A stretch of DNA of 55,802 nt, taken from IMG/VR virus record IMGVR_UViG_3300011252_000208, positions 1-55,802 of that record; one strand, given 5' to 3'. The notes beneath the pieces are model-generated. The model was not told the origin of the DNA. It did no database searches and saw nothing but the letters and a program-made list of their open reading frames with translations. The stretch comes from a virus. Positions 1,425 to 28,040 of the stretch are shown one piece after another. Position 1 is the stretch's first letter. The number at the start of each line of letters is the position of its first letter. Position numbers and translations under genes: made by a program.

Positions 1425-3056
1425 TTAAGACGCAATCTTTTTCCAATTTGGTGAAGAACCCGGAGATATTTGCGTCCAATCTCCCGGTGGGGCTGGGGTT
1501 ATTGGGGTCCAGTTTGCATTATGTATAGGCGTTATATTATTCCAAACAAACGCTGTTCCCAACTCCATAGTAGCAGAAACACCTTCTGGATATACATATT
1601 GGCCTATTCCTATTGACACAGGGAACGGATCACGCCCTGATGCTGATACGCCTGTAACCGCATAACCAAACGCTATTGTAACGGACCCAACGCTTCCTGT
1701 AGCTGACACGCCTGTAACGGATACGTCGATAGGTATGTTGACAGTTACGTCCCCAACTGCGCCTGTTCCTGCAACGCCTGTAGCAGATATATTCGCATCT
1801 ACTTTGGTTGTTACGCTTCCAACACCAGACGAACCACTAACGCCTGTTGTCGCAACGGATGCACCGAATTTTATTGTTACAGCCCCTGAAGAGCCTGTAG
1901 CTGATACACCTGTCGCGGAAGCCTGACCATCAGCTTCAACGCTGACAGAACCCACACTGCCCGTTCCCAACACACCTGTTACAGATTGATTTGTGTTGGC
2001 GTCTACTGTTGTAGAACCTACGCTACCAACGGCTCCTATACCTGACGCGGGAATGTTCGCTGATAATGTTAAACCTACAGAGCCAACACCGCCTGTTGCT
2101 GACAGACCCGTTACAGGCTGCGTTACTCCACTAGTTGTGGTCGCACTACCAACAGATGCAGTTCCGAATACGCCTGTAACATTTTGGACAACAGAACTTG
2201 TTGTTTGCGGTATGTTGCCAACTTCACCTGTTCCAACAACACCAGAAGCAGAAATGTTATTGTCAAACTCTAGGCTTACAGTGCCTACACCGCCTGTCGC
2301 AGAGACACCTGTTACAGAAACATTCTTTCCAATTCTAGCGTCTACCGTCCCTATAGCAGACGTACCAGAAACACCAGAAACGGAAACGTTTACATCGCTA
2401 GAAACGGTGGCAGAACCAACAGACCCTATAGAGTTTATGCCTACTGGGTGGGCATTTGCATCTGCGTCTATAGCGACAGAATCTAAAGCAGTTGTTCCCA
2501 CAACTCCTGTAACGGGTATGTTTGCTGAAAGACCTGTAAAGGTAGTTCCAACAGCGCCTGTGCCAGAAACCCCTGTTACAGTAAAGTTTGCATCGCCAGA
2601 AACAGTAGAAGAACCAACAGCGCCTGTAGATGATACTCCCGTAACAGGAACATTTGCATCTCCTGATACAGTATGCGCGGTGCCAACTGACCCTGTAGCT
2701 ATTACTGCGCTGGCTGAAATGTTACCAACACCAGTAACAGTTACGCTTCCAACACTGCCTGTAGCCGCTAAACCTGTCGCTGTTGTATTTGCGGCACCTG
2801 TCGTTGTTACAGAGCCAACACTTGCTGTTGCTGAAACCCCTGTAACAGAAATATTTGCTGCGCTAGTGGTAGTTACGCTACCAACCGAACCCGTAGCGGC
2901 TATCCCCGTTACGGGCTGTGTTACGCCGCTAGTAGTTGTTACACTGCCAACAGAAGCAGTACCCGCTACACCTGTAACGGATACGCCTACAGATAGGCTA
3001 TTCCAAGAGCCAGAACCCCAACCACCTCGGCCCCAGCCAGAATAAGGAAGTGGCAT
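1425..3056 (-). CDS. Gly/Thr/Val repeat virion protein (about 21 copies of a 22-residue unit)
   Basis: A 543-residue protein. After a Gly/Trp-rich start (GWGRGGWGSGSWN) it consists of about 21 tandem copies of a roughly 22-residue unit with consensus VTGVSATGSVGSVTV plus about seven variable residues, often ending in NxS. The C-terminal 40 residues differ, with Trp-centred repeats (NWTPI, DWTQI, NWKKI). Such regular Gly/Val/Thr repeats suggest a beta-solenoid or fibrous rod. The same unit appears about three times in the 4436-5311 protein and once at the C-terminus of the 50555-50848 protein. Codons differ between copies, so selection acts on the protein repeat. Likely an appendage or fibre protein; function unknown. 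Confidence 0.8.
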   Translation of the reverse strand: MPLPYSGWGRGGWGSGSWNSLSVGVSVTGVAGTASVGSVTTTSGVTQPVTGIAATGSVGSVTTTSAANISVTGVSATASVGSVTTTGAANTTATGLAATGSVGSVTVTGVGNISASAVIATGSVGTAHTVSGDANVPVTGVSSTGAVGSSTVSGDANFTVTGVSGTGAVGTTFTGLSANIPVTGVVGTTALDSVAIDADANAHPVGINSIGSVGSATVSSDVNVSVSGVSGTSAIGTVDARIGKNVSVTGVSATGGVGTVSLEFDNNISASGVVGTGEVGNIPQTTSSVVQNVTGVFGTASVGSATTTSGVTQPVTGLSATGGVGSVGLTLSANIPASGIGAVGSVGSTTVDANTNQSVTGVLGTGSVGSVSVEADGQASATGVSATGSSGAVTIKFGASVATTGVSGSSGVGSVTTKVDANISATGVAGTGAVGDVTVNIPIDVSVTGVSATGSVGSVTIAFGYAVTGVSASGRDPFPVSIGIGQYVYPEGVSATMELGTAFVWNNITPIHNANWTPITPAPPGDWTQISPGSSPNWKKIAS

Positions 3057-7153: not shown

Positions 7154-7633
7154 TTATGCTACAAGATTGCTGGCTTGCTGATACAGAACAGTCGCTCTGA
7201 TTTCACCTGCGTTAGTAGCACCTGTGGTAGTCCAAGTAAGGCGAACATCTGTTGTGTTAGATGTTTCAGCCCAAGACAATGCACCACCAGCTTCAGTGGT
7301 AGGGTACTTGCGTCCTGCGCCAGAAGCTACGGTAATCGAAAACCCGTTGATAAATGTGCCGTTTCCACCAGCAGTATCGCCAACGCTGAAAACCGCAGTA
7401 GCATTACCCATAGCTGTTGGGCAATCTAGCACAATATCAATAATTTGAGACTTTGCAGGAATAACTACGTCAGTGACGTTTGCAGCAGAAGCACCGCCTG
7501 CAAGAGAGCCAGTAGTAAAGGACTGTGCCATGACAACTTGGCCTGTGTTTTTAATATCAGAGCCTACGGTTGTTCCAGTAGTATCTTTGATTGTTCCTGC
7601 CAGAATTGGCCCGGAAAAAGTAGTTGTACCCAT
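7154..7633 (-). CDS. Structural protein, likely capsid decoration
   Basis: A 159-residue protein starting MGTTTFSGPILAGTIKDTTG. It is rich in Thr, Gly, Ala and Val, has no charged catalytic motifs, and ends TVLYQQASNLVA. I recognise the MGTTTFSGP start as typical of structural proteins encoded next to major capsid genes in marine phages. It is separated from the capsid gene by a 132-base gap containing a strong terminator, so it may be expressed by read-through or from its own promoter. Likely a capsid-surface or trimeric decoration protein; assignment is contextual. Confidence 0.6.
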   Translation of the reverse strand: MGTTTFSGPILAGTIKDTTGTTVGSDIKNTGQVVMAQSFTTGSLAGGASAANVTDVVIPAKSQIIDIVLDCPTAMGNATAVFSVGDTAGGNGTFINGFSITVASGAGRKYPTTEAGGALSWAETSNTTDVRLTWTTTGATNAGEIRATVLYQQASNLVA

Positions 7634-7708
7634 GTCTATCTCCTGTCGTGGGTTAAGTCAGACGCTATTTGCGCCTGTCAGGGATAAGCAAATAATACAC
7701 AACAATCC

Positions 7709-7765: not shown

Positions 7766-8674
7766 TTACGCTCCGGGTGAACCAAATACGCAACGTGGGT
7801 CCGAGAAACCAAATGAATAACGCTCACGCGCTTTAAAGCGCATGTTGCCTGTATCAAAATCTGCTTCCATGTTTGTACGCATGGGAGAACGCTCAAAGTG
7901 CTTGAAGCCATTTGGCGCGTCAGTTTTGATAAAGAACGCATCAGTATCGGTGAGGAAGTGGTTAATTGTATAACCCTCTGGCACCATACCCATGTTTTTT
8001 GTCGCGTTAATATCATTGTCAGCAGTGCCGGGACGCAAGGTCGATTCCAGCAGACGATCTGCAATGAACTGAAGCTGTGGTGGAATAATCAGCTTAGTGC
8101 CACGAAGGGCAATAATCATATTCCGCTCATCAACAAAGCCTGAAATGTCAATCAGAGCATTTTCAAGCGAAGTTTCATTGAGGTCAGCCGCAGTAGCTGG
8201 TTCGTTACGGAATGTGCCGCCTTGAGCCAGTGGGTGTACTGCAGAACAAAGCTCAACACCGTCACCGCCTGTGAATGCCGCGTTGAAAGCGTTGTTAAGA
8301 ACTGCAGCAGCCTTAACTTGCTTAGAATGCGCCATAGAACGGGCAAGTGCCTTGGTGTAACGAGCGCCAAGACGATCATACAGATTGTCTTCAATCGCCT
8401 CTTCAGTCAAAGCGAATGCAAGAGCTACAGTTTCATGTGTGTAACGAGCGGTGTACGCTTCGTTAGCATCATCAAACGACACCCCTGATCCTTCACTTTT
8501 AGTAGGAGCATTGCCAAAACCTGAAAGCATAACTTCTTCTTCGAACGCACGATCTGACGATTCTGTGTCGAAAATTTCTGCATGCTCATTGTCGTAGCGG
8601 TTGTACTCCATGCCGAACAAAGCATTTAGGCCCGGCTCAAGCTCTTTGACAAGTTGTGAACGAGAAATAGCCAT
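7766..8674 (-). CDS. Major capsid protein
   Basis: This 302-residue protein has features of the Mu-gpT-like/HK97-fold capsid group. These are an N-terminal helix (MAISRSQLVKELEPGLNALF), EEEVMLSGFGNAPTKSEG, a SYDDA-like FDDANEAYTARYTHETVALAF strand, a long spine helix with DRLGARYTKALARSMAHSKQ, the ELCSAVHPLAQGGTF loop and a C-terminal RFKARERYSFGFSDPRCVFG. It forms the icosahedral shell. Position fits: scaffold, small linker gene, candidate decoration protein, capsid, then a strong terminator. The start has a good ribosome binding site (GGAGATAAG region). The stop codon overlaps a CCCGAACAA element shared with other gene ends. Very likely correct. Confidence 0.9.
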   Translation of the reverse strand: MAISRSQLVKELEPGLNALFGMEYNRYDNEHAEIFDTESSDRAFEEEVMLSGFGNAPTKSEGSGVSFDDANEAYTARYTHETVALAFALTEEAIEDNLYDRLGARYTKALARSMAHSKQVKAAAVLNNAFNAAFTGGDGVELCSAVHPLAQGGTFRNEPATAADLNETSLENALIDISGFVDERNMIIALRGTKLIIPPQLQFIADRLLESTLRPGTADNDINATKNMGMVPEGYTINHFLTDTDAFFIKTDAPNGFKHFERSPMRTNMEADFDTGNMRFKARERYSFGFSDPRCVFGSPGA

Positions 8675-21768: not shown

Positions 21769-22023
21769 TCAATCCATATACGAAACACGCTCCAACATGC
21801 CGTTCCTAACCATGCTGTCAGCAAAACTAGACCTACTGTCATAATAATAAGTCCCCTTGTTCCACTCACACATCTCAATCGCCGTCCGCCGCATATATCC
21901 ACCCTCGTCAGGACAAGGAAAATCATTCGCCCACTTGCGACGATACATTACAGGTACAACCTCTGACAAAGACTGACCCTCAAACTCATAATCACCGCCG
22001 TACCTAATTCTAAACGTTGCCAT
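21769..22023 (-). CDS. Small conserved hypothetical protein
   Basis: An 84-residue protein: MATFRIRYGGDYEFEGQSLS, then VMYRRKWANDFPCPDEGGYM and aromatic-rich NKGTYYYDSRSSFADSMV. No family recognised with certainty. It is compact, with mixed charge and several Tyr/Trp. It overlaps the start of the upstream HhH-like gene by 14 bases, so it is translated with it. It is the last gene before a 62-base gap preceding the giant gene. It looks like an accessory regulator or host-interaction protein, but that is only context. Confidence 0.5.
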   Translation of the reverse strand: MATFRIRYGGDYEFEGQSLSEVVPVMYRRKWANDFPCPDEGGYMRRTAIEMCEWNKGTYYYDSRSSFADSMVRNGMLERVSYMD

Positions 22024-24309: not shown

Positions 24310-24334
24310 GAAAAAACCCGCGACATGCGCGGGT
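24310..24334 (-). terminator. Rho-independent terminator after 24362-24538 gene
   Basis: A 7-bp stem ACCCGCG/CGCGGGT (24316-24334) with loop ACATG; on the minus strand it is followed by TTTTTTC. It would end transcripts coming from the amidoligase direction before the 24047 operon. Confidence 0.75.
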
Positions 24335-24612: not shown

Positions 24613-25806
24613 TTAGCGGCGCGCTATGGTGTCGATACGGTCAAACCAGTAATCGTAATCATCATCCGTGGTGCGCGCCCATATGCTAGGATTAGACAAA
24701 TCTTGCACTACATCTGTGCGCGCTGTCACTTCGTCCCATGTCTCTAAGATTTGATAGCGTGTGTAGTCAGTACCATCACCATAGCTGTGCCCTTGTGCTT
24801 GCTGTGTGTGGGTCACAAGCGCGCTATCGCCTATACGGTTGCGGATTTCGGAAACCATGCGGCGCACGCTTGTTTCTGCTACCCCTGTGGCAAGTATGAT
24901 TTCGTGCGTTGTCGCGCCGCGATCTGTGCGCAACATGTCATACACGTTGCGTATGCGGCGCGCCTGTGCAGCAAACGCGCTTGCGCCTGTGCGCGGTGTT
25001 GTGTGCGTTACTGTGGTCATCTGTGGGCGTGGGTGCCGTGTCTCAATGCTGTGCTGTGCGATGTTCAAAAGCAATTGCACCCATTTTTGAATTTTGATCG
25101 TTTCCGTGGTGCCGCCTGCCTGCCGAAATTCAATGGTCTGCTTGCCTTGTTCAAAATTCTGCAAATTGATGTTGGTGAATTTGCCGTGCAATTCGGTCAT
25201 GGCGCGCACAATTTCGCTTGTATCGGTTGCGCGCTTTACGTTGCGGATCATGCCTGCGGTGATTTGATGCCCCATAAATTGACTAAAATGTGGGTGTCCC
25301 TCTGTGCGTGATTTTTGATGTAGCGAATTGATAATATCTTGCTGGTCATACATGCGGACAATAATATCACGCAGTTGCTCTGTGGTAATTGGGTCTTCAG
25401 TTCTATTTTCAAGACTAATCATGCGCCCAGTGCGTTGTGTGTAAGCGATACTCTCGCGGCAAAACATTTCACGCTCACGCTCTGTTTTGACGTTAAGCAA
25501 GCGGCGTGTGGACATGTGAACATGACAACCGCAACCGCCGCGTGATGATGACCGCTCTGGAATAGTCGCGCCGCCACGTACTGAGCTATTGAACATTTCT
25601 TCAACCGCTGCCCACGCAAAAGCGCAATCGACTAAAATGGGCGTATTGGTTTCACTGTTTACAACGCCGCAATCGCTGCACGTTGTGAAGCCTTCAACGC
25701 CGTCTCTGCGATACTGATCGGCTTGTGTGTGCTGTGTGATATTGCCTGAAAACTCAGGCTCGAAACCAAATGGCAGGGCGTTCTCTGTGTGGGTTTGTAC
25801 TGGCAT
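24613..25806 (-). CDS. Putative amidoligase (COOH-NH2 ligase fold) with C-terminal winged helix
   Basis: A 397-residue protein. Residues 13-255 match the amidoligase-2 pattern: FGFEPEFSG (E16, E18), CGCHVHMS (H95, H97) and QTIEFRQAGGTTETIKIQKW (E226, R228). These are the expected metal- and ATP-binding positions of glutamine-synthetase-like ligases that join a carboxylate to an amine. A Cys pair CSDC (43-46) adds a knuckle. Residues 282-352 form a winged helix (GATTHEIILATGVAETSVRR). The start has an AGGAGAG ribosome binding site. The gene is unusually rich in GCGC compared with neighbours, a sign of separate origin. A gamma-glutamylcyclotransferase-like gene lies 1 kb upstream. The substrate is unknown. 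Confidence 0.75.
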   Translation of the reverse strand: MPVQTHTENALPFGFEPEFSGNITQHTQADQYRRDGVEGFTTCSDCGVVNSETNTPILVDCAFAWAAVEEMFNSSVRGGATIPERSSSRGGCGCHVHMSTRRLLNVKTEREREMFCRESIAYTQRTGRMISLENRTEDPITTEQLRDIIVRMYDQQDIINSLHQKSRTEGHPHFSQFMGHQITAGMIRNVKRATDTSEIVRAMTELHGKFTNINLQNFEQGKQTIEFRQAGGTTETIKIQKWVQLLLNIAQHSIETRHPRPQMTTVTHTTPRTGASAFAAQARRIRNVYDMLRTDRGATTHEIILATGVAETSVRRMVSEIRNRIGDSALVTHTQQAQGHSYGDGTDYTRYQILETWDEVTARTDVVQDLSNPSIWARTTDDDYDYWFDRIDTIARR

Positions 25807-25850
25807 TTTTTACTCTCCTATAAGGCGAACGGGTTATTCCGTGTCGCTCT

Positions 25851-25886
25851 TTATATATATAGCCCTATTTTCAACCTACTTGTCAA
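25851..25886 (-). promoter_or_regulatory. Putative promoter of the amidoligase gene
   Basis: On the minus strand a perfect TTGACA (25886-25881) is followed 17-19 bases later by an AT stretch CTATATATATAA containing TATATA. The transcript would have a 5' leader of about 40-50 bases before ATG 25806. Confidence 0.55.
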
Positions 25887-25935
25887 CACCATTATCACGA
25901 AATGTTTCAACTTGTAACATCAAGTGATAAGACTT

Positions 25936-25993
25936 ACCATTGGTCAACTTTTAAACCATTAGTCAATTTTCAAAACATTCAGTCAACTTCCAA
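25936..25993. repeat. Three iteron-like direct repeats (TTGAC boxes)
   Basis: Units ACCATTGGTCAACTTTTAA (25936-25954), ACCATTAGTCAATTTTCAA (25955-25973) and AACATTCAGTCAACTTCCAA (25974-25993) lie head to tail. Each carries GTCAA (TTGAC on the minus strand), spaced 19-20 bases, about two helical turns. Possible operator or replication-initiator sites. Confidence 0.6.
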
Positions 25994-26005
25994 ACCGTTG
26001 GAAAG

Positions 26006-26021
26006 CCGAACAATTGTTCGG
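26006..26021. promoter_or_regulatory. Palindromic element, copy 1
   Basis: A perfect 16-bp palindrome CCGAACAATTGTTCGG, followed by GTTTG. It is in non-coding DNA between the amidoligase promoter and the 26146 gene. Other copies: 26735-26748, 27707-27720 and 27817-27834. Confidence 0.7.
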
Positions 26022-26068
26022 GTTTGTATGTGCGTGGTGCGGTGTGGATATGATAAAGGGCCGAGGTA

Positions 26069-26133
26069 TATAATACCCCGACCCCGACCCCGATTGATCC
26101 CGACCCGATCCCGAAGGCCCGACCCCGAAGAGT
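26069..26133 (-). repeat. G-rich TCGGG tract, potential G-quadruplex
   Basis: The plus strand reads as repeated ACCCCG/ATCCCG units; the minus strand, which is the sense of flanking genes, has eight or more runs of three or four G separated by two to seven bases. This fits the usual G3+N1-7 rule for quadruplex formation. It lies 3' of the 26146 gene. Confidence 0.6.
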
Positions 26134-26145
26134 CAGGCCCGATTG

Positions 26146-26349
26146 TTAAGAAGAAACGTCCGCTTCTGTTTCTTCTAATACTTCCATTGCGTGCTCAAGT
26201 GCTTCCTGATCGCTATCAATACCGTAGCAAGTAAAGCAATGGTAATCGACCCACTGCCCCCCGATAGGTGCCTGAAGATTAAAAGTTGCGGCTTCATTCC
26301 ACTGAAGCCGAAAATGCTCACCGTTGTGTTCTACTTCCCAATGTTTCAT
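26146..26349 (-). CDS. Small acidic hypothetical protein
   Basis: A 67-residue protein starting MKHWEVEHNGEHFRLQWNEA, then IGGQWVDYHCFTCYGIDSDQ and an acidic C-terminus (HAMEVLEETEADVSS). The start ATG at 26349 shares the TAATG junction with the upstream stop; a 14-codon longer frame is rejected. It contains CFTC and several aromatic residues. I do not recognise the family. It is co-transcribed with 26349-26606 from a strong promoter and sits between the amidoligase and cyclotransferase genes, so it may belong to that system. Confidence 0.55.
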   Translation of the reverse strand: MKHWEVEHNGEHFRLQWNEAATFNLQAPIGGQWVDYHCFTCYGIDSDQEALEHAMEVLEETEADVSS

Positions 26350-26606
26350 TATTCTGTCTCCCGCTTGTAAAAGAAATCGCCTGTTGTCCATACATGAAAA
26401 TTGTCATGCTTTCGCAACCTGATTTGTGCGTAATACTCAGCACAACCGTTCGGCACATTGTCTGTATATTCTAATTCAAGTTCGCCGCAATATAGCTTGT
26501 CAATCTCTTTTGAAACTAACGCTTCAATGTCTAACTTTTCATTTGGCCCTAGACGGCGATTGCAAAGTAACTCGCCGGTATGATTGTTTTCGATTGTTAA
26601 AAACAT
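26349..26606 (-). CDS. Small hypothetical protein of the amidoligase island
   Basis: An 85-residue protein starting MFLTIENNHTGELLCNRRLG and ending HVWTTGDFFYKRETE. The ATG at 26606 has AGGAG seven bases upstream and a well-formed promoter at 26631-26659. The longer frame to 26858 crosses the promoter, a palindrome and a terminator, so it is rejected. The chain is mixed alpha/beta with EALVSKEIDKLYCGELELEY. I know no family. Its stop is coupled (TAATG) to the next gene. Possible partner of the amidoligase system by location only. Confidence 0.55.
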   Translation of the reverse strand: MFLTIENNHTGELLCNRRLGPNEKLDIEALVSKEIDKLYCGELELEYTDNVPNGCAEYYAQIRLRKHDNFHVWTTGDFFYKRETE

Positions 26607-26630
26607 AGCGTTCTCCTTTTTGCTAACACC

Positions 26631-26659
26631 TATATAACGTGAGTCAACCACCAGGTCAA
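26631..26659 (-). promoter_or_regulatory. Sigma70-type promoter for 26606 operon
   Basis: On the minus strand TTGACC (26659-26654), a 17-base spacer and TATATA (26636-26631). The spacer itself contains a second TTGAC, giving a direct repeat like the TTGAC iterons at 25936-25993. Start codon follows about 25 bases after -10. Confidence 0.6.
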
Positions 26660-26734
26660 CAAGTATTTTAAATAAGTTTACCCGGTGCAATTTAACCGGT
26701 CCGGGCGACTCCGGGCGCTCCGGGTAAATAAACA

Positions 26735-26748
26735 CGAACAATTGTTCG
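26735..26748. promoter_or_regulatory. Palindromic element, copy 2
   Basis: A perfect 14-bp palindrome CGAACAATTGTTCG followed by GGTTC, between the 26606 promoter and the terminator of the cyclotransferase operon. Confidence 0.7.
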
Positions 26749-26763
26749 GGTTCTATTCCGGGC

Positions 26764-26794
26764 AAAAAAATACCCGGTGAATTAACACCGGGTA
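26764..26794 (-). terminator. Rho-independent terminator after the cyclotransferase gene
   Basis: A 9-bp stem TACCCGGTG/CACCGGGTA (26771-26794) with a 6-base loop; on the minus strand it is followed by TTTTTTTGCC. It lies 5 bases beyond the 26800 stop codon. Confidence 0.85.
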
Positions 26795-26799
26795 AAAGT

Positions 26800-27207
26800 T
26801 TATGCGACTTCTGTTTTCCCCGCTTCGTTTGCCGCAACCCGAAGGCAATAATCATCAAGCCCGAAGTCCCGATACCCTTCTTCGATCATGTCGAAGTAGT
26901 GCTGACTTGGAGGCCCGACATAGTTTTTATTATTCATTTCATACACTAACCATCCGCCGTTAATCTTCCGACGATTGTAAAGCGTTGGATACCCTTCCAA
27001 TATATCCAGTGCTTCTAGGCAACTAGGCGTGATGGCCCATAGCGCAACGGGGCATATGCTGTCCCGATCCCGAACAATGTCAGCAACGCCCCGAAAAACT
27101 AGCCGAGTGTCGGGCAGGTAGAACCCGCCCATCGGTTTAGCTAACGGGCAACGTGCTTCCATTGCCCGACGATTAGTATTCATGCCATAGGCCATATAAA
27201 GCATCAT
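26800..27207 (-). CDS. Gamma-glutamylcyclotransferase-like (GGCT/AIG2 fold) protein
   Basis: This 135-residue protein matches the GGCT-like fold. The N-terminal strand and loop are MMLYMAYGMNTN (YG-x-N glycine loop, residues 7-10). The core is LVFRGVADIV, then CPVALWAITPSCLEALDILE and GYPTLYNRR, where E71 is the expected catalytic acid. The C-terminal GYRDFGLDDYCLRVA helix is typical. GGCT enzymes cleave gamma-glutamyl amide bonds, releasing 5-oxoproline. Start 27207 is two bases after the upstream stop. Together with the amidoligase it suggests opposite or sequential reactions on a glutamyl amide. Substrate unknown. Confidence 0.85.
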   Translation of the reverse strand: MMLYMAYGMNTNRRAMEARCPLAKPMGGFYLPDTRLVFRGVADIVRDRDSICPVALWAITPSCLEALDILEGYPTLYNRRKINGGWLVYEMNNKNYVGPPSQHYFDMIEEGYRDFGLDDYCLRVAANEAGKTEVA

Positions 27208-27209
27208 GT

Positions 27210-27515
27210 TTACACCGACACCCATTCACTGTCGCCAAGCTCCCGAACAGTCTCACCGTCCTTGACAAGATACTGCCGCAGGTTACGCTGACATACGCGA
27301 TAATCAGAACCGCTGAGTTCTAACAGGCCGTTGATACGATCCCGCGTTGTGACGGTGGGCCAATCTGCGAGAGTAAACCACAGTTTACTTTTGCCTCGCT
27401 CTGCGATCAAGTTTCCGTGCAGCCATACACTATAGCCGTCCGTATTAGTCCGCTGTGCCGAAGCCTTCTCACCTTTTAAGAAAGCGGACATGATTTTCTT
27501 TGTTTCTTTTCTCAT
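27210..27515 (-). CDS. Conserved phage hypothetical (HGN.IA..LW..W.T.TTRDRLNGL type)
   Basis: A 101-residue protein: MRKETKKIMSAFLKGEKASA, then TNTDGYSVWLHGNLIAERGK, SKLWFTLADWPTVTTRDRIN and GLLEL. This succession of LHGN-IA, LW-x(4)-W-x-T-x-TTRDRINGL is a small family I know from many unrelated tailed phages; no activity has been assigned to my knowledge. It is the first gene of the cyclotransferase operon and lies below a promoter with paired ATCCCACA boxes. The RBS is AAAGGA. It is probably an early, host-interaction or regulatory protein. Confidence 0.65.
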   Translation of the reverse strand: MRKETKKIMSAFLKGEKASAQRTNTDGYSVWLHGNLIAERGKSKLWFTLADWPTVTTRDRINGLLELSGSDYRVCQRNLRQYLVKDGETVRELGDSEWVSV

Positions 27516-27644: not shown

Positions 27645-27706
27645 TAGTTGAGTAAAGAGGAGTAATGCAGCGCCAAGATGCCTGACCCCGGCCTGTTTGT
27701 CAAACG

Positions 27707-27720
27707 CGAACAATTGTTCG
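27707..27720. promoter_or_regulatory. Palindromic element, copy 3
   Basis: A perfect 14-bp palindrome CGAACAATTGTTCG followed by GGTTG, in non-coding DNA. Confidence 0.7.
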
Positions 27721-27731
27721 GGTTGTGATTG

Positions 27732-27766
27732 CCGGGGGTCAAGGTCTGTCAACGGTTGACCCCCGG
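27732..27766. repeat. Inverted repeat, 11-bp arms
   Basis: Arms CCGGGGGTCAA (27732-27742) and TTGACCCCCGG (27756-27766) with a 13-base loop. A very stable hairpin in RNA, or a cruciform/operator in DNA; no T-tract follows. Confidence 0.6.
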
Positions 27767-27816
27767 TTCTGCCCGGCGACCCAAAGTGTACCCGGCAGGT
27801 TCCCCGGAACCCCGAT

Positions 27817-27834
27817 CCCGAACAATTGTGCGGG
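27817..27834. promoter_or_regulatory. Palindromic element, copy 4 (one mismatch)
   Basis: CCCGAACAATTGTGCGGG: the 18-bp form of the palindrome with one mismatched pair, followed by TTC. A related inverted repeat GTACCCGAA/TTCGGGTAC lies at 27924-27947. Confidence 0.6.
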
Positions 27835-28040
27835 TTCCCCGACCCGGCCCGATCCCGGCCCGATTGCAGGCAACCGGGGGTAAAAGACTTAACATAATAC
27901 TTGTTTGTGATAGGGGGGCTACAGTACCCGAACAAGTCTTCGGGTACCCCGACCCCCGAAAGACCCGACTTGGCCCCCTGCGGGCCTTCAGATCGCCCCG
28001 ACGATGGCCCTGCGGCCCTACCCGCCAAGCCCAGCCCCGA

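What the first reader, a model, noticed from the sequence alone, without database searches (positions are those of the whole stretch)
24613..27515. Amidoligase plus gamma-glutamylcyclotransferase pair in a phage accessory island
Seen: a 397-residue protein with the amidoligase-2 motif set (E16/E18, H95/H97, E226/R228) and, 1 kb upstream, a GGCT-like protein (YGMN loop, E71), with three small unknown genes between and beside them. Family knowledge: amidoligases join a carboxylate to an amine, and GGCT enzymes release 5-oxoproline from gamma-glutamyl amides; I recall such genes being linked in predicted peptide-modification systems. Inference: the pair may make and remove a glutamyl amide on a host or phage molecule (cell-wall peptide, protein or small metabolite), perhaps with the 26146-26349 and 26349-26606 proteins as partners. 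Separate promoters and terminators suggest independent timing.
Basis: partly seen in the sequence, partly recalled or inferred. Interest (0 to 1): 0.82.

Follow-up and report, generated by a model that had tools for sequence, protein, structure and literature searches.

The report
Phage amide-making and amide-breaking enzyme pair
This marine phage carries a real pair of enzymes, one predicted to glue an amine onto an acid and one predicted to cut such a bond, a pairing already seen in other phages; here the gluing enzyme also has a DNA-binding tail, always sits with an unknown 80-residue protein, and comes with a repeated DNA word that relatives lacking the genes do not have.

Summary
24613-25806(-) encodes an Amidoligase_2 (PF12224) enzyme whose ligase residues are invariant in homologues down to 18% identity. 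26800-27225(-) encodes a gamma-glutamyl cyclotransferase with its catalytic Glu. They co-occur in 21 of 21 amidoligase-seeded contigs long enough to show it, in same-strand and opposite-strand arrangements, and are missing together in the near-full-length relative G014. The pair itself is known from several unrelated phage groups. Unusual here: (i) the amidoligase carries a C-terminal winged-helix domain, better conserved than its catalytic part and not aligned by any amidoligase of an isolated phage found here; (ii) an unmatched ~80-residue protein follows every such amidoligase (34 of 34); (iii) a word, AACCCGAACA, and its palindrome, CGAACAATTGTTCG, are strongly over-represented in island-bearing genomes, fall almost only between the island genes there, and are at background in island-less relatives. 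Best reading: a glutamyl-amide making and breaking module that regulates itself, the ligase doubling as a DNA-binding regulator (compare BirA). The substrate, and binding of the word by the winged helix, are inferred. A cell-wall role stays possible but untested. New variant of a known kind.

The parts
24613..25806 (-). Amidoligase_2 (glutamine-synthetase-like ligase), catalytic domain about residues 10-262, C-terminal winged helix about residues 280-336
24760..24970 (-). Part of the amidoligase gene coding for the winged-helix domain and its wing (about residues 280-350; DUF3489-like in 16 of 30 homologues, HTH_23 in 10 of 30)
26800..27225 (-). Gamma-glutamyl cyclotransferase (GGACT/AIG2-like); likely start at the ATG of residue 7
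21769..22023 (-). 84-aa protein of an unmatched family, downstream on the same strand in every winged-helix amidoligase locus that reaches it (34 of 34 in an amidoligase-seeded set; 71 of 71 over all loci)
26146..26349 (-). 67-aa protein, frequent but not obligatory (34 of 134 amidoligase loci, always same strand, 0.3-1.4 kb upstream of the amidoligase)
26349..26606 (-). 85-aa protein, conserved only in close relatives (family of 16 hits)
27210..27515 (-). 101-aa protein of phrog_554 / Pfam Kyano_Gp96, overlapping the start of the GGCT gene
26007..26024 (+). Perfect palindrome CGAACAATTGTTCG plus GGTT, about 200 bp upstream of the amidoligase
26735..26752 (+). Same element, about 130 bp upstream of the 26349-26606 gene
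27707..27724 (+). Same element, about 190 bp upstream of the 27210-27515/GGCT unit
27819..27836 (+). Imperfect copy, one mismatch to the 18-base consensus
26771..26794 (-). Intrinsic-terminator-like hairpin with T run just after GGCT
24316..24334 (-). Intrinsic-terminator-like hairpin with T run after the amidoligase

Best explanation
The island is a module that makes and breaks an amide bond and regulates its own genes. The amidoligase uses ATP to join a carboxylate, probably the gamma-carboxyl of a glutamate, to an amine; the cyclotransferase releases such a glutamyl group as 5-oxoproline, so the modification can be removed or its by-products cleared. The ligase ends in a winged-helix DNA-binding domain, which I infer binds the palindrome CGAACAATTGTTCG in front of each transcription unit of the island (and weaker copies elsewhere in the phage genome), so that expression is tied to the ligase, in the way the BirA biotin ligase is also a repressor. 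The ~80-residue protein is an obligatory partner of this form of the enzyme, perhaps an adaptor or substrate. Shown by computation: enzyme families, intact active sites, the linkage of the three genes, the presence of a winged helix, and the link between word and island. Inferred: the reaction, the reversal, the binding of the word by the winged helix, and the role of the small protein.
For: Enzyme families and active sites. Linkage: 21/21 GGCT and 34/34 84-aa protein in amidoligase-seeded loci; of 251 ORF families tested, the amidoligase, GGCT and the 84-aa family are the only ones in all 9 word-bearing genomes and in neither word-less relative. Winged helix: 79/80 amidoligases; domain hits; PDB matches over it are ArsR/MarR-type and TFE winged helices; it is the best conserved part (median pairwise identity 54% against 34% for the N-terminal catalytic part); it also occurs as about 25 free-standing ORFs. 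Word: AACCCGAACA 17 times against 0.13 expected in the window; 61 of 61 loci have CCCGAACA upstream of the amidoligase; 166 of 170 palindromes lie outside conserved island genes, which cover 48% of that span; island-less G014 and G024, with TerL 86-87% identical to the window, are at background (1 and 0 copies against about 0.5 expected), while more distant island-bearing relatives (TerL 74-76%) have 11-20.
Against: No binding of the word by the winged helix can be shown here. Copies of the word also lie inside coding regions far from the island, more than simple autoregulation needs. Only two island-less members of the same phage group were available, one of them a 30-kb fragment, and G014 lacks other accessory genes too. 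The glutamyl nature of the bond rests on the GGCT partner alone. The 67-aa and 84-aa proteins match nothing known.
Confidence: 0.45

Rival explanations
1. Cell-wall modification: the ligase adds an amine or amino acid to peptidoglycan peptides (gamma-glutamyl or similar bond) to block superinfection, and GGCT recycles the products. This is the reading usual in the phage literature since Iyer et al. 2009 (phiEco32, RIO-1-like phages).
For: The same two families lie in the seven-gene cassette of RIO-1-like podoviruses, for which superinfection exclusion is proposed (PMC5498523). The catalytic part diverges fast (34-39% identity between phages whose TerL is 84-87% identical), as expected for an arms race at the surface.
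Against: The ATP-grasp, second amidoligase and glutamine amidotransferase of those cassettes were not seen among the window ORFs scanned. A DNA-binding tail has no obvious place in this reading except regulation. I know of no direct test of the function in any phage.
Confidence: 0.3
2. Small-metabolite chemistry: the ligase makes gamma-glutamyl amines (for example of polyamines or amino acids) and GGCT breaks them, serving nitrogen or redox metabolism during infection.
For: Gamma-glutamylamine cyclotransferases of this fold exist, and human GGACT and GGCT structures match the model. Phage-ZRK32 carries amidoligase, glutathione synthase and GGCT, and its authors proposed a nitrogen-metabolism role (PMC10945688).
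Against: A futile pair needs separation in time. Rapid divergence of the catalytic part and an obligatory orphan partner are not expected of a housekeeping reaction.
Confidence: 0.15
3. Protein tagging in the manner of Pup: the ligase attaches a small phage protein (the 84-aa or 67-aa protein) to targets and GGCT helps remove it.
For: Top structural matches include the Pup ligase PafA and depupylase Dop. A small protein is always encoded next to the ligase.
Against: The C-terminus of the 84-aa family is not fixed: 57 of 82 end in Asp, the rest differ, for example VDAKQG. The 67-aa protein is missing in most loci.
Confidence: 0.08
4. The word and palindrome are not read by the ligase but by a host regulator (a LexA/SOS-box-like site, CGAAC-N4-GTTCG), or are a sequence habit of a particular host. 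This concerns the regulation only and can hold together with any of the chemical readings.
For: The core resembles the LexA box of Gram-positive bacteria (from memory, not tested). Copies occur in all reading frames of coding regions.
Against: The centre is AATT in 116 of 140 sites, less variable than expected for a LexA box. Word-bearing phages range from 37 to 56% GC, suggesting different hosts. A scan of 84,980 bacterial and archaeal species found only 14 matches to the 18-base form, spread over unrelated taxa; about 7 are expected by my rough estimate. The word tracks the island and not phage kinship.
Confidence: 0.3

Closest known systems
Amidoligase_2 + GGCT (AIG2) pairs in phages: Bacillus phage 035JT001 gp41/gp45, Geobacillus phage GR1, Arthrobacter phage Salgado gp97/gp98 (with glutamine amidotransferase gp99), Heliusvirales
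   Same: Same two enzyme families encoded adjacent or within about 1.1 kb of each other
   Different: Matches to amidoligases of isolated phages cover only residues 15-249 of a relative of the window protein: no winged helix. The 84-aa partner is absent from those that could be checked, and CCCGAACA is not clearly above the reversed-word control
Peptidoglycan modification cassette of RIO-1-like podoviruses (PSA-HP1, phiEco32 and others; Iyer 2009, Hardies 2013, as cited in PMC5498523)
   Same: Amidoligase and gamma-glutamyl cyclotransferase together in a podovirus-like genome
   Different: That cassette has seven genes including an ATP-grasp enzyme, a second amidoligase and a glutamine amidotransferase; here two enzymes and one orphan protein
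Amidoligase + glutamine amidotransferase in marine OM43 phages (PMC10580990)
   Same: PF12224 in marine phages
   Different: Partner is a glutamine amidotransferase; the paper's main text does not mention a cyclotransferase
Group II biotin protein ligases (BirA)
   Same: Works like: a ligase fused to a winged-helix DNA-binding domain (PMC4016012)
   Different: Not related by sequence as far as tested here; domain order reversed; regulation here is inferred only
Mycobacteriophage stoperators (PMC9283540, PMC6550527)
   Same: Many copies of one recognition-like site spread over a phage genome
HTVC023P-type pelagiphages (HTVC023P, HTVC027P, 023Pt_psg01)
   Same: Closest named phages by terminase (TerL 54-62% identical)
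   Different: They lack the amidoligase, gave no GGCT match, and the word is at background

Membership tests
Amidoligase_2 (PF12224) | Profile match above the curated cut-off | tested here: met
   32 bits against 22; all 30 homologues match
Amidoligase_2 (PF12224) | Glutamine-synthetase-superfamily active-site residues (E-x-E, H-x-H, E-x-R) | tested here: met
   Invariant in 29-30 sequences; fold match to GS, YbdK, PafA/Dop
Amidoligase_2 (PF12224) | ATP-dependent amide formation | not testable with these tools
   Needs enzyme assay
Gamma-glutamyl cyclotransferase (PF06094 / phrog_2520) | Profile match | tested here: met
   22.9 bits against 22.8 for the window protein, all 25 homologues match; phrog_2520 E=4.5e-22
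Gamma-glutamyl cyclotransferase (PF06094 / phrog_2520) | Substrate loop YGxN and catalytic Glu | tested here: met
   Invariant Y13-G14-M15-N16 and E77 in 25 sequences; E77 aligns with E98 of human GGCT
RIO-1-like peptidoglycan modification cassette | ATP-grasp, second amidoligase and glutamine amidotransferase present | tested here: not met
   Only one Amidoligase_2 in the whole record; none of the others among the ORFs scanned; about 15 shorter or unscanned ORFs remain
RIO-1-like peptidoglycan modification cassette | Acts on peptidoglycan | not testable with these tools
   No chemistry available
BirA-like ligase/regulator (works-like comparison) | DNA-binding winged helix fused to the ligase | tested here: met
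   Winged-helix domain present by profile and model; DNA binding itself not tested
BirA-like ligase/regulator (works-like comparison) | Binds an operator in front of its own genes | tested here: inconclusive
   A candidate operator exists and tracks the island; binding not shown
Anti-phage defence system (PADLOC) | Match to a known defence protein | tested here: not met
   Only a weak hit to a methyltransferase model, E=0.012

The most novel reading that the evidence does not exclude
The amidoligase is a DNA-binding ligase: its winged helix reads the phage-specific word AACCCGAACA / CGAACAATTGTTCG, so that one protein both makes a glutamyl amide and controls, or is delivered to, about 20 sites on the phage genome, together with an obligatory small protein of a new family.
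Probability: 0.4. Interest if true: 0.82.

Novelty: new variant of a known kind. Interest (0 to 1): 0.6.

Why it matters
Amidoligase plus cyclotransferase pairs recur in many unrelated phages, yet I found no report of a tested function. This group gives handles that earlier examples lack: a DNA-binding domain on the ligase, a candidate operator whose presence tracks the genes, an obligatory small partner, and relatives that lack everything together. That makes the regulation, and through it the substrate, directly testable. It would also be, to my knowledge, the first ligase of the glutamine-synthetase superfamily that doubles as a DNA-binding regulator.

Tried and rejected
Amidoligase search of annotated phages with the window protein itself: no match; a closer-to-consensus relative found 31. 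PDB by sequence: nothing useful for the amidoligase, weak human GGCT for the cyclotransferase. LexA box as the explanation of the palindrome: weakened by the fixed AATT centre, the background level in island-less relatives and the 37-56% GC range. Host signature: the genome scan for the 18-base form gave 14 scattered hits, none with these genes. Pup-like tail on the 84-aa protein: not a fixed C-terminus. The 67-aa protein as universal partner: 34 of 134 loci only. Co-variation of winged-helix sequence with loss of the word: the loci without the word were short fragments, so no conclusion. Splitting palindromes into coding and intergenic by ORF length: spoiled by spurious ORFs, redone against conserved gene families. 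tRNA: none. Defence library: nothing. Iyer et al. 2009 is not held; it is cited through later papers.
Full report
Check of the observation. The 397-aa product of 24613-25806(-) is an Amidoligase_2 protein by Pfam (E=1.4e-7, above cut-off) and PHROGs. In 29-30 diverged homologues E16, E18, D45, E52, G93, H95, H97, R151, R167, T224, E226 and R228 are invariant, so this is an active-looking enzyme. A model with pLDDT 84 finds glutamine synthetase, the carboxylate-amine ligase YbdK and the Pup enzymes PafA and Dop first among solved structures; TM-scores are low, probably because the protein has two domains. The 26800-27225(-) product is a gamma-glutamyl cyclotransferase by Pfam, PHROGs and fold, with the substrate loop and the catalytic glutamate conserved. 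Terminator-like hairpins follow both genes; promoter-like sites are not above chance.

Linkage. Contigs gathered by GGCT carry an amidoligase wherever the contig is long enough, in three arrangements: same strand with about 1 kb between, same strand nearly adjacent, or opposite strands with 2-4 kb between. Contigs gathered by the amidoligase carry GGCT in 21 of 21 cases with at least 5.5 kb upstream. Contigs gathered by terminase alone carry the amidoligase in 14 of 17 cases that reach the slot. Relative G014, a 55-kb contig whose TerL is 87% identical to the window's, lacks both genes; so does the 30-kb contig G024. The pair is therefore very likely a functional unit, gained or lost together as far as these few cases show. 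It is not new as such: it occurs in Heliusvirales, a Bacillus phage, Geobacillus phage GR1 and Arthrobacter phage Salgado, in Clostridium prophages (PMC11318856), in RIO-1-like podoviruses (PMC5498523), in Arthrobacter cluster AL phages (PMC5513430) and in Phage-ZRK32 (PMC10945688).

What is different here. First, the amidoligase ends in a winged-helix domain. Pfam sees DUF3489 or HTH_23 there in many members, the model shows the helices and wing, and solved-structure matches over that part are ArsR, MarR and TFE winged helices. It is present in 79 of 80 amidoligase ORFs of this group. In the 31 phage records found with a relative of the window protein, the match covers only the catalytic part. 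The winged helix is the best conserved part of the protein, median pairwise identity 54% against 34-37% for the first two thirds of the catalytic domain, and it also occurs as about 25 free-standing small ORFs, for example just upstream of the amidoligase in relative G002. Second, an 84-aa protein (21769-22023 in the window) lies downstream on the same strand of every winged-helix amidoligase that can be checked, 34 of 34 in the amidoligase-seeded set and 71 of 71 over all loci. It matches no family or structure, and is missing next to the five amidoligases without a winged helix that had enough flank. Third, the amidoligase diverges much faster than most of the genome: 35-39% identity between phages with TerL 84-87%, capsid protein 89-91% and GGCT 67-73% identical.

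The repeated word. The window holds three perfect copies of the palindrome CGAACAATTGTTCG, each followed by GGTT, one in front of each transcription unit of the island. The word inside it, AACCCGAACA, occurs 17 times in the window against 0.13 expected, on both strands and in all reading frames. With palindromes masked, the other loci held at that stage have 653 copies against 4.5 expected. A scan of viral contigs for the 18-base form alone, with no protein query, returned 67 new loci of which 53 carry the amidoligase, GGCT or both. Inside the island 166 of 170 distinct palindromes fall outside the conserved genes, which cover 48% of the span. All 9 island-bearing genomes compared have 11-27 copies of CCCGAACA against at most about 1.3 expected, over a GC range of 37-56%, whereas G014, G024 and the isolates HTVC027P, HTVC023P, 023Pt_psg01 and DSL-LC04 have 0 or 1. 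G014 and G024 are closer to the window by terminase than some of the word-bearing phages, so the word follows the island and not kinship. Among 251 ORF families tested, the amidoligase, GGCT and the 84-aa family are the only ones in all 9 word-bearing genomes and in neither word-less one; several of the genomes are fragments, so absences count less than presences.

Mechanism. Shown: two enzymes with intact active sites, an obligatory small partner, a winged-helix domain on the ligase, and a candidate operator that tracks the genes. Inferred from family knowledge: the ligase spends ATP to make an amide, and GGCT removes a gamma-glutamyl group as 5-oxoproline. Inferred from the pattern: the winged helix binds the palindrome and regulates the island, as the DNA-binding domain of BirA does for the biotin genes (PMC4016012). 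The substrate remains open: the cell-wall reading of Iyer et al. is possible and fits the fast divergence of the catalytic part, but the extra enzymes of the RIO-1 cassette were not found in the ORFs scanned here. Small-metabolite and Pup-like readings are less likely.

Limits. The relatives are environmental contigs, mostly fragments, fetched by similarity; their hosts are unknown. Only two island-less members of the same group were found. No structure jobs remained for the 84-aa protein or the complex. Enrichment was judged against a Markov background with trinucleotide counts, which does not model codon use, although the two strands, three frames and island-less controls argue against a coding cause.

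Noticed in passing
window 7746-50691, about 17 places listed: Degenerate copies of CGAACAATTGTTCGGGTT are spread over the whole phage genome, including coding regions: 28 matches with up to 4 mismatches on either strand (overlapping palindrome halves counted separately), against 0.1 in simulations.
   Followed up: partly
window 7631-7683 (-): Rfam match to Mu-gpT-DE RNA (64.6 bits, gathering score 49), directly downstream of the predicted major head protein gene 7766-8674.
   Followed up: no
window 24613-25806 compared with relatives G001-G004: The amidoligase is only 35-39% identical between phages whose head protein is about 90% identical: one of the fastest-diverging conserved genes of the genome, with the winged helix diverging least.
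   Followed up: partly
L207:11628-11864 and about 24 other loci: Free-standing small proteins homologous to the winged helix of the amidoligase, in the example just upstream of it.
   Followed up: partly
L295:4637-11174 (relative G014): In the island-less relative the slot beside the terminase genes holds three larger unmatched ORFs on the opposite strand (429, 231 and 169 aa) and a GP88-family protein (PF17338).
   Followed up: no
window 26080-26140 and 27690-28010: Intergenic stretches are dense in short GC-rich repeats of the type CCCGATCCCGACCCCGA around the palindromes.
   Followed up: no
window 1425-3056: 543-aa ORF of unknown family with repeats spaced by multiples of about 66 bases (12 copies).
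   Followed up: no
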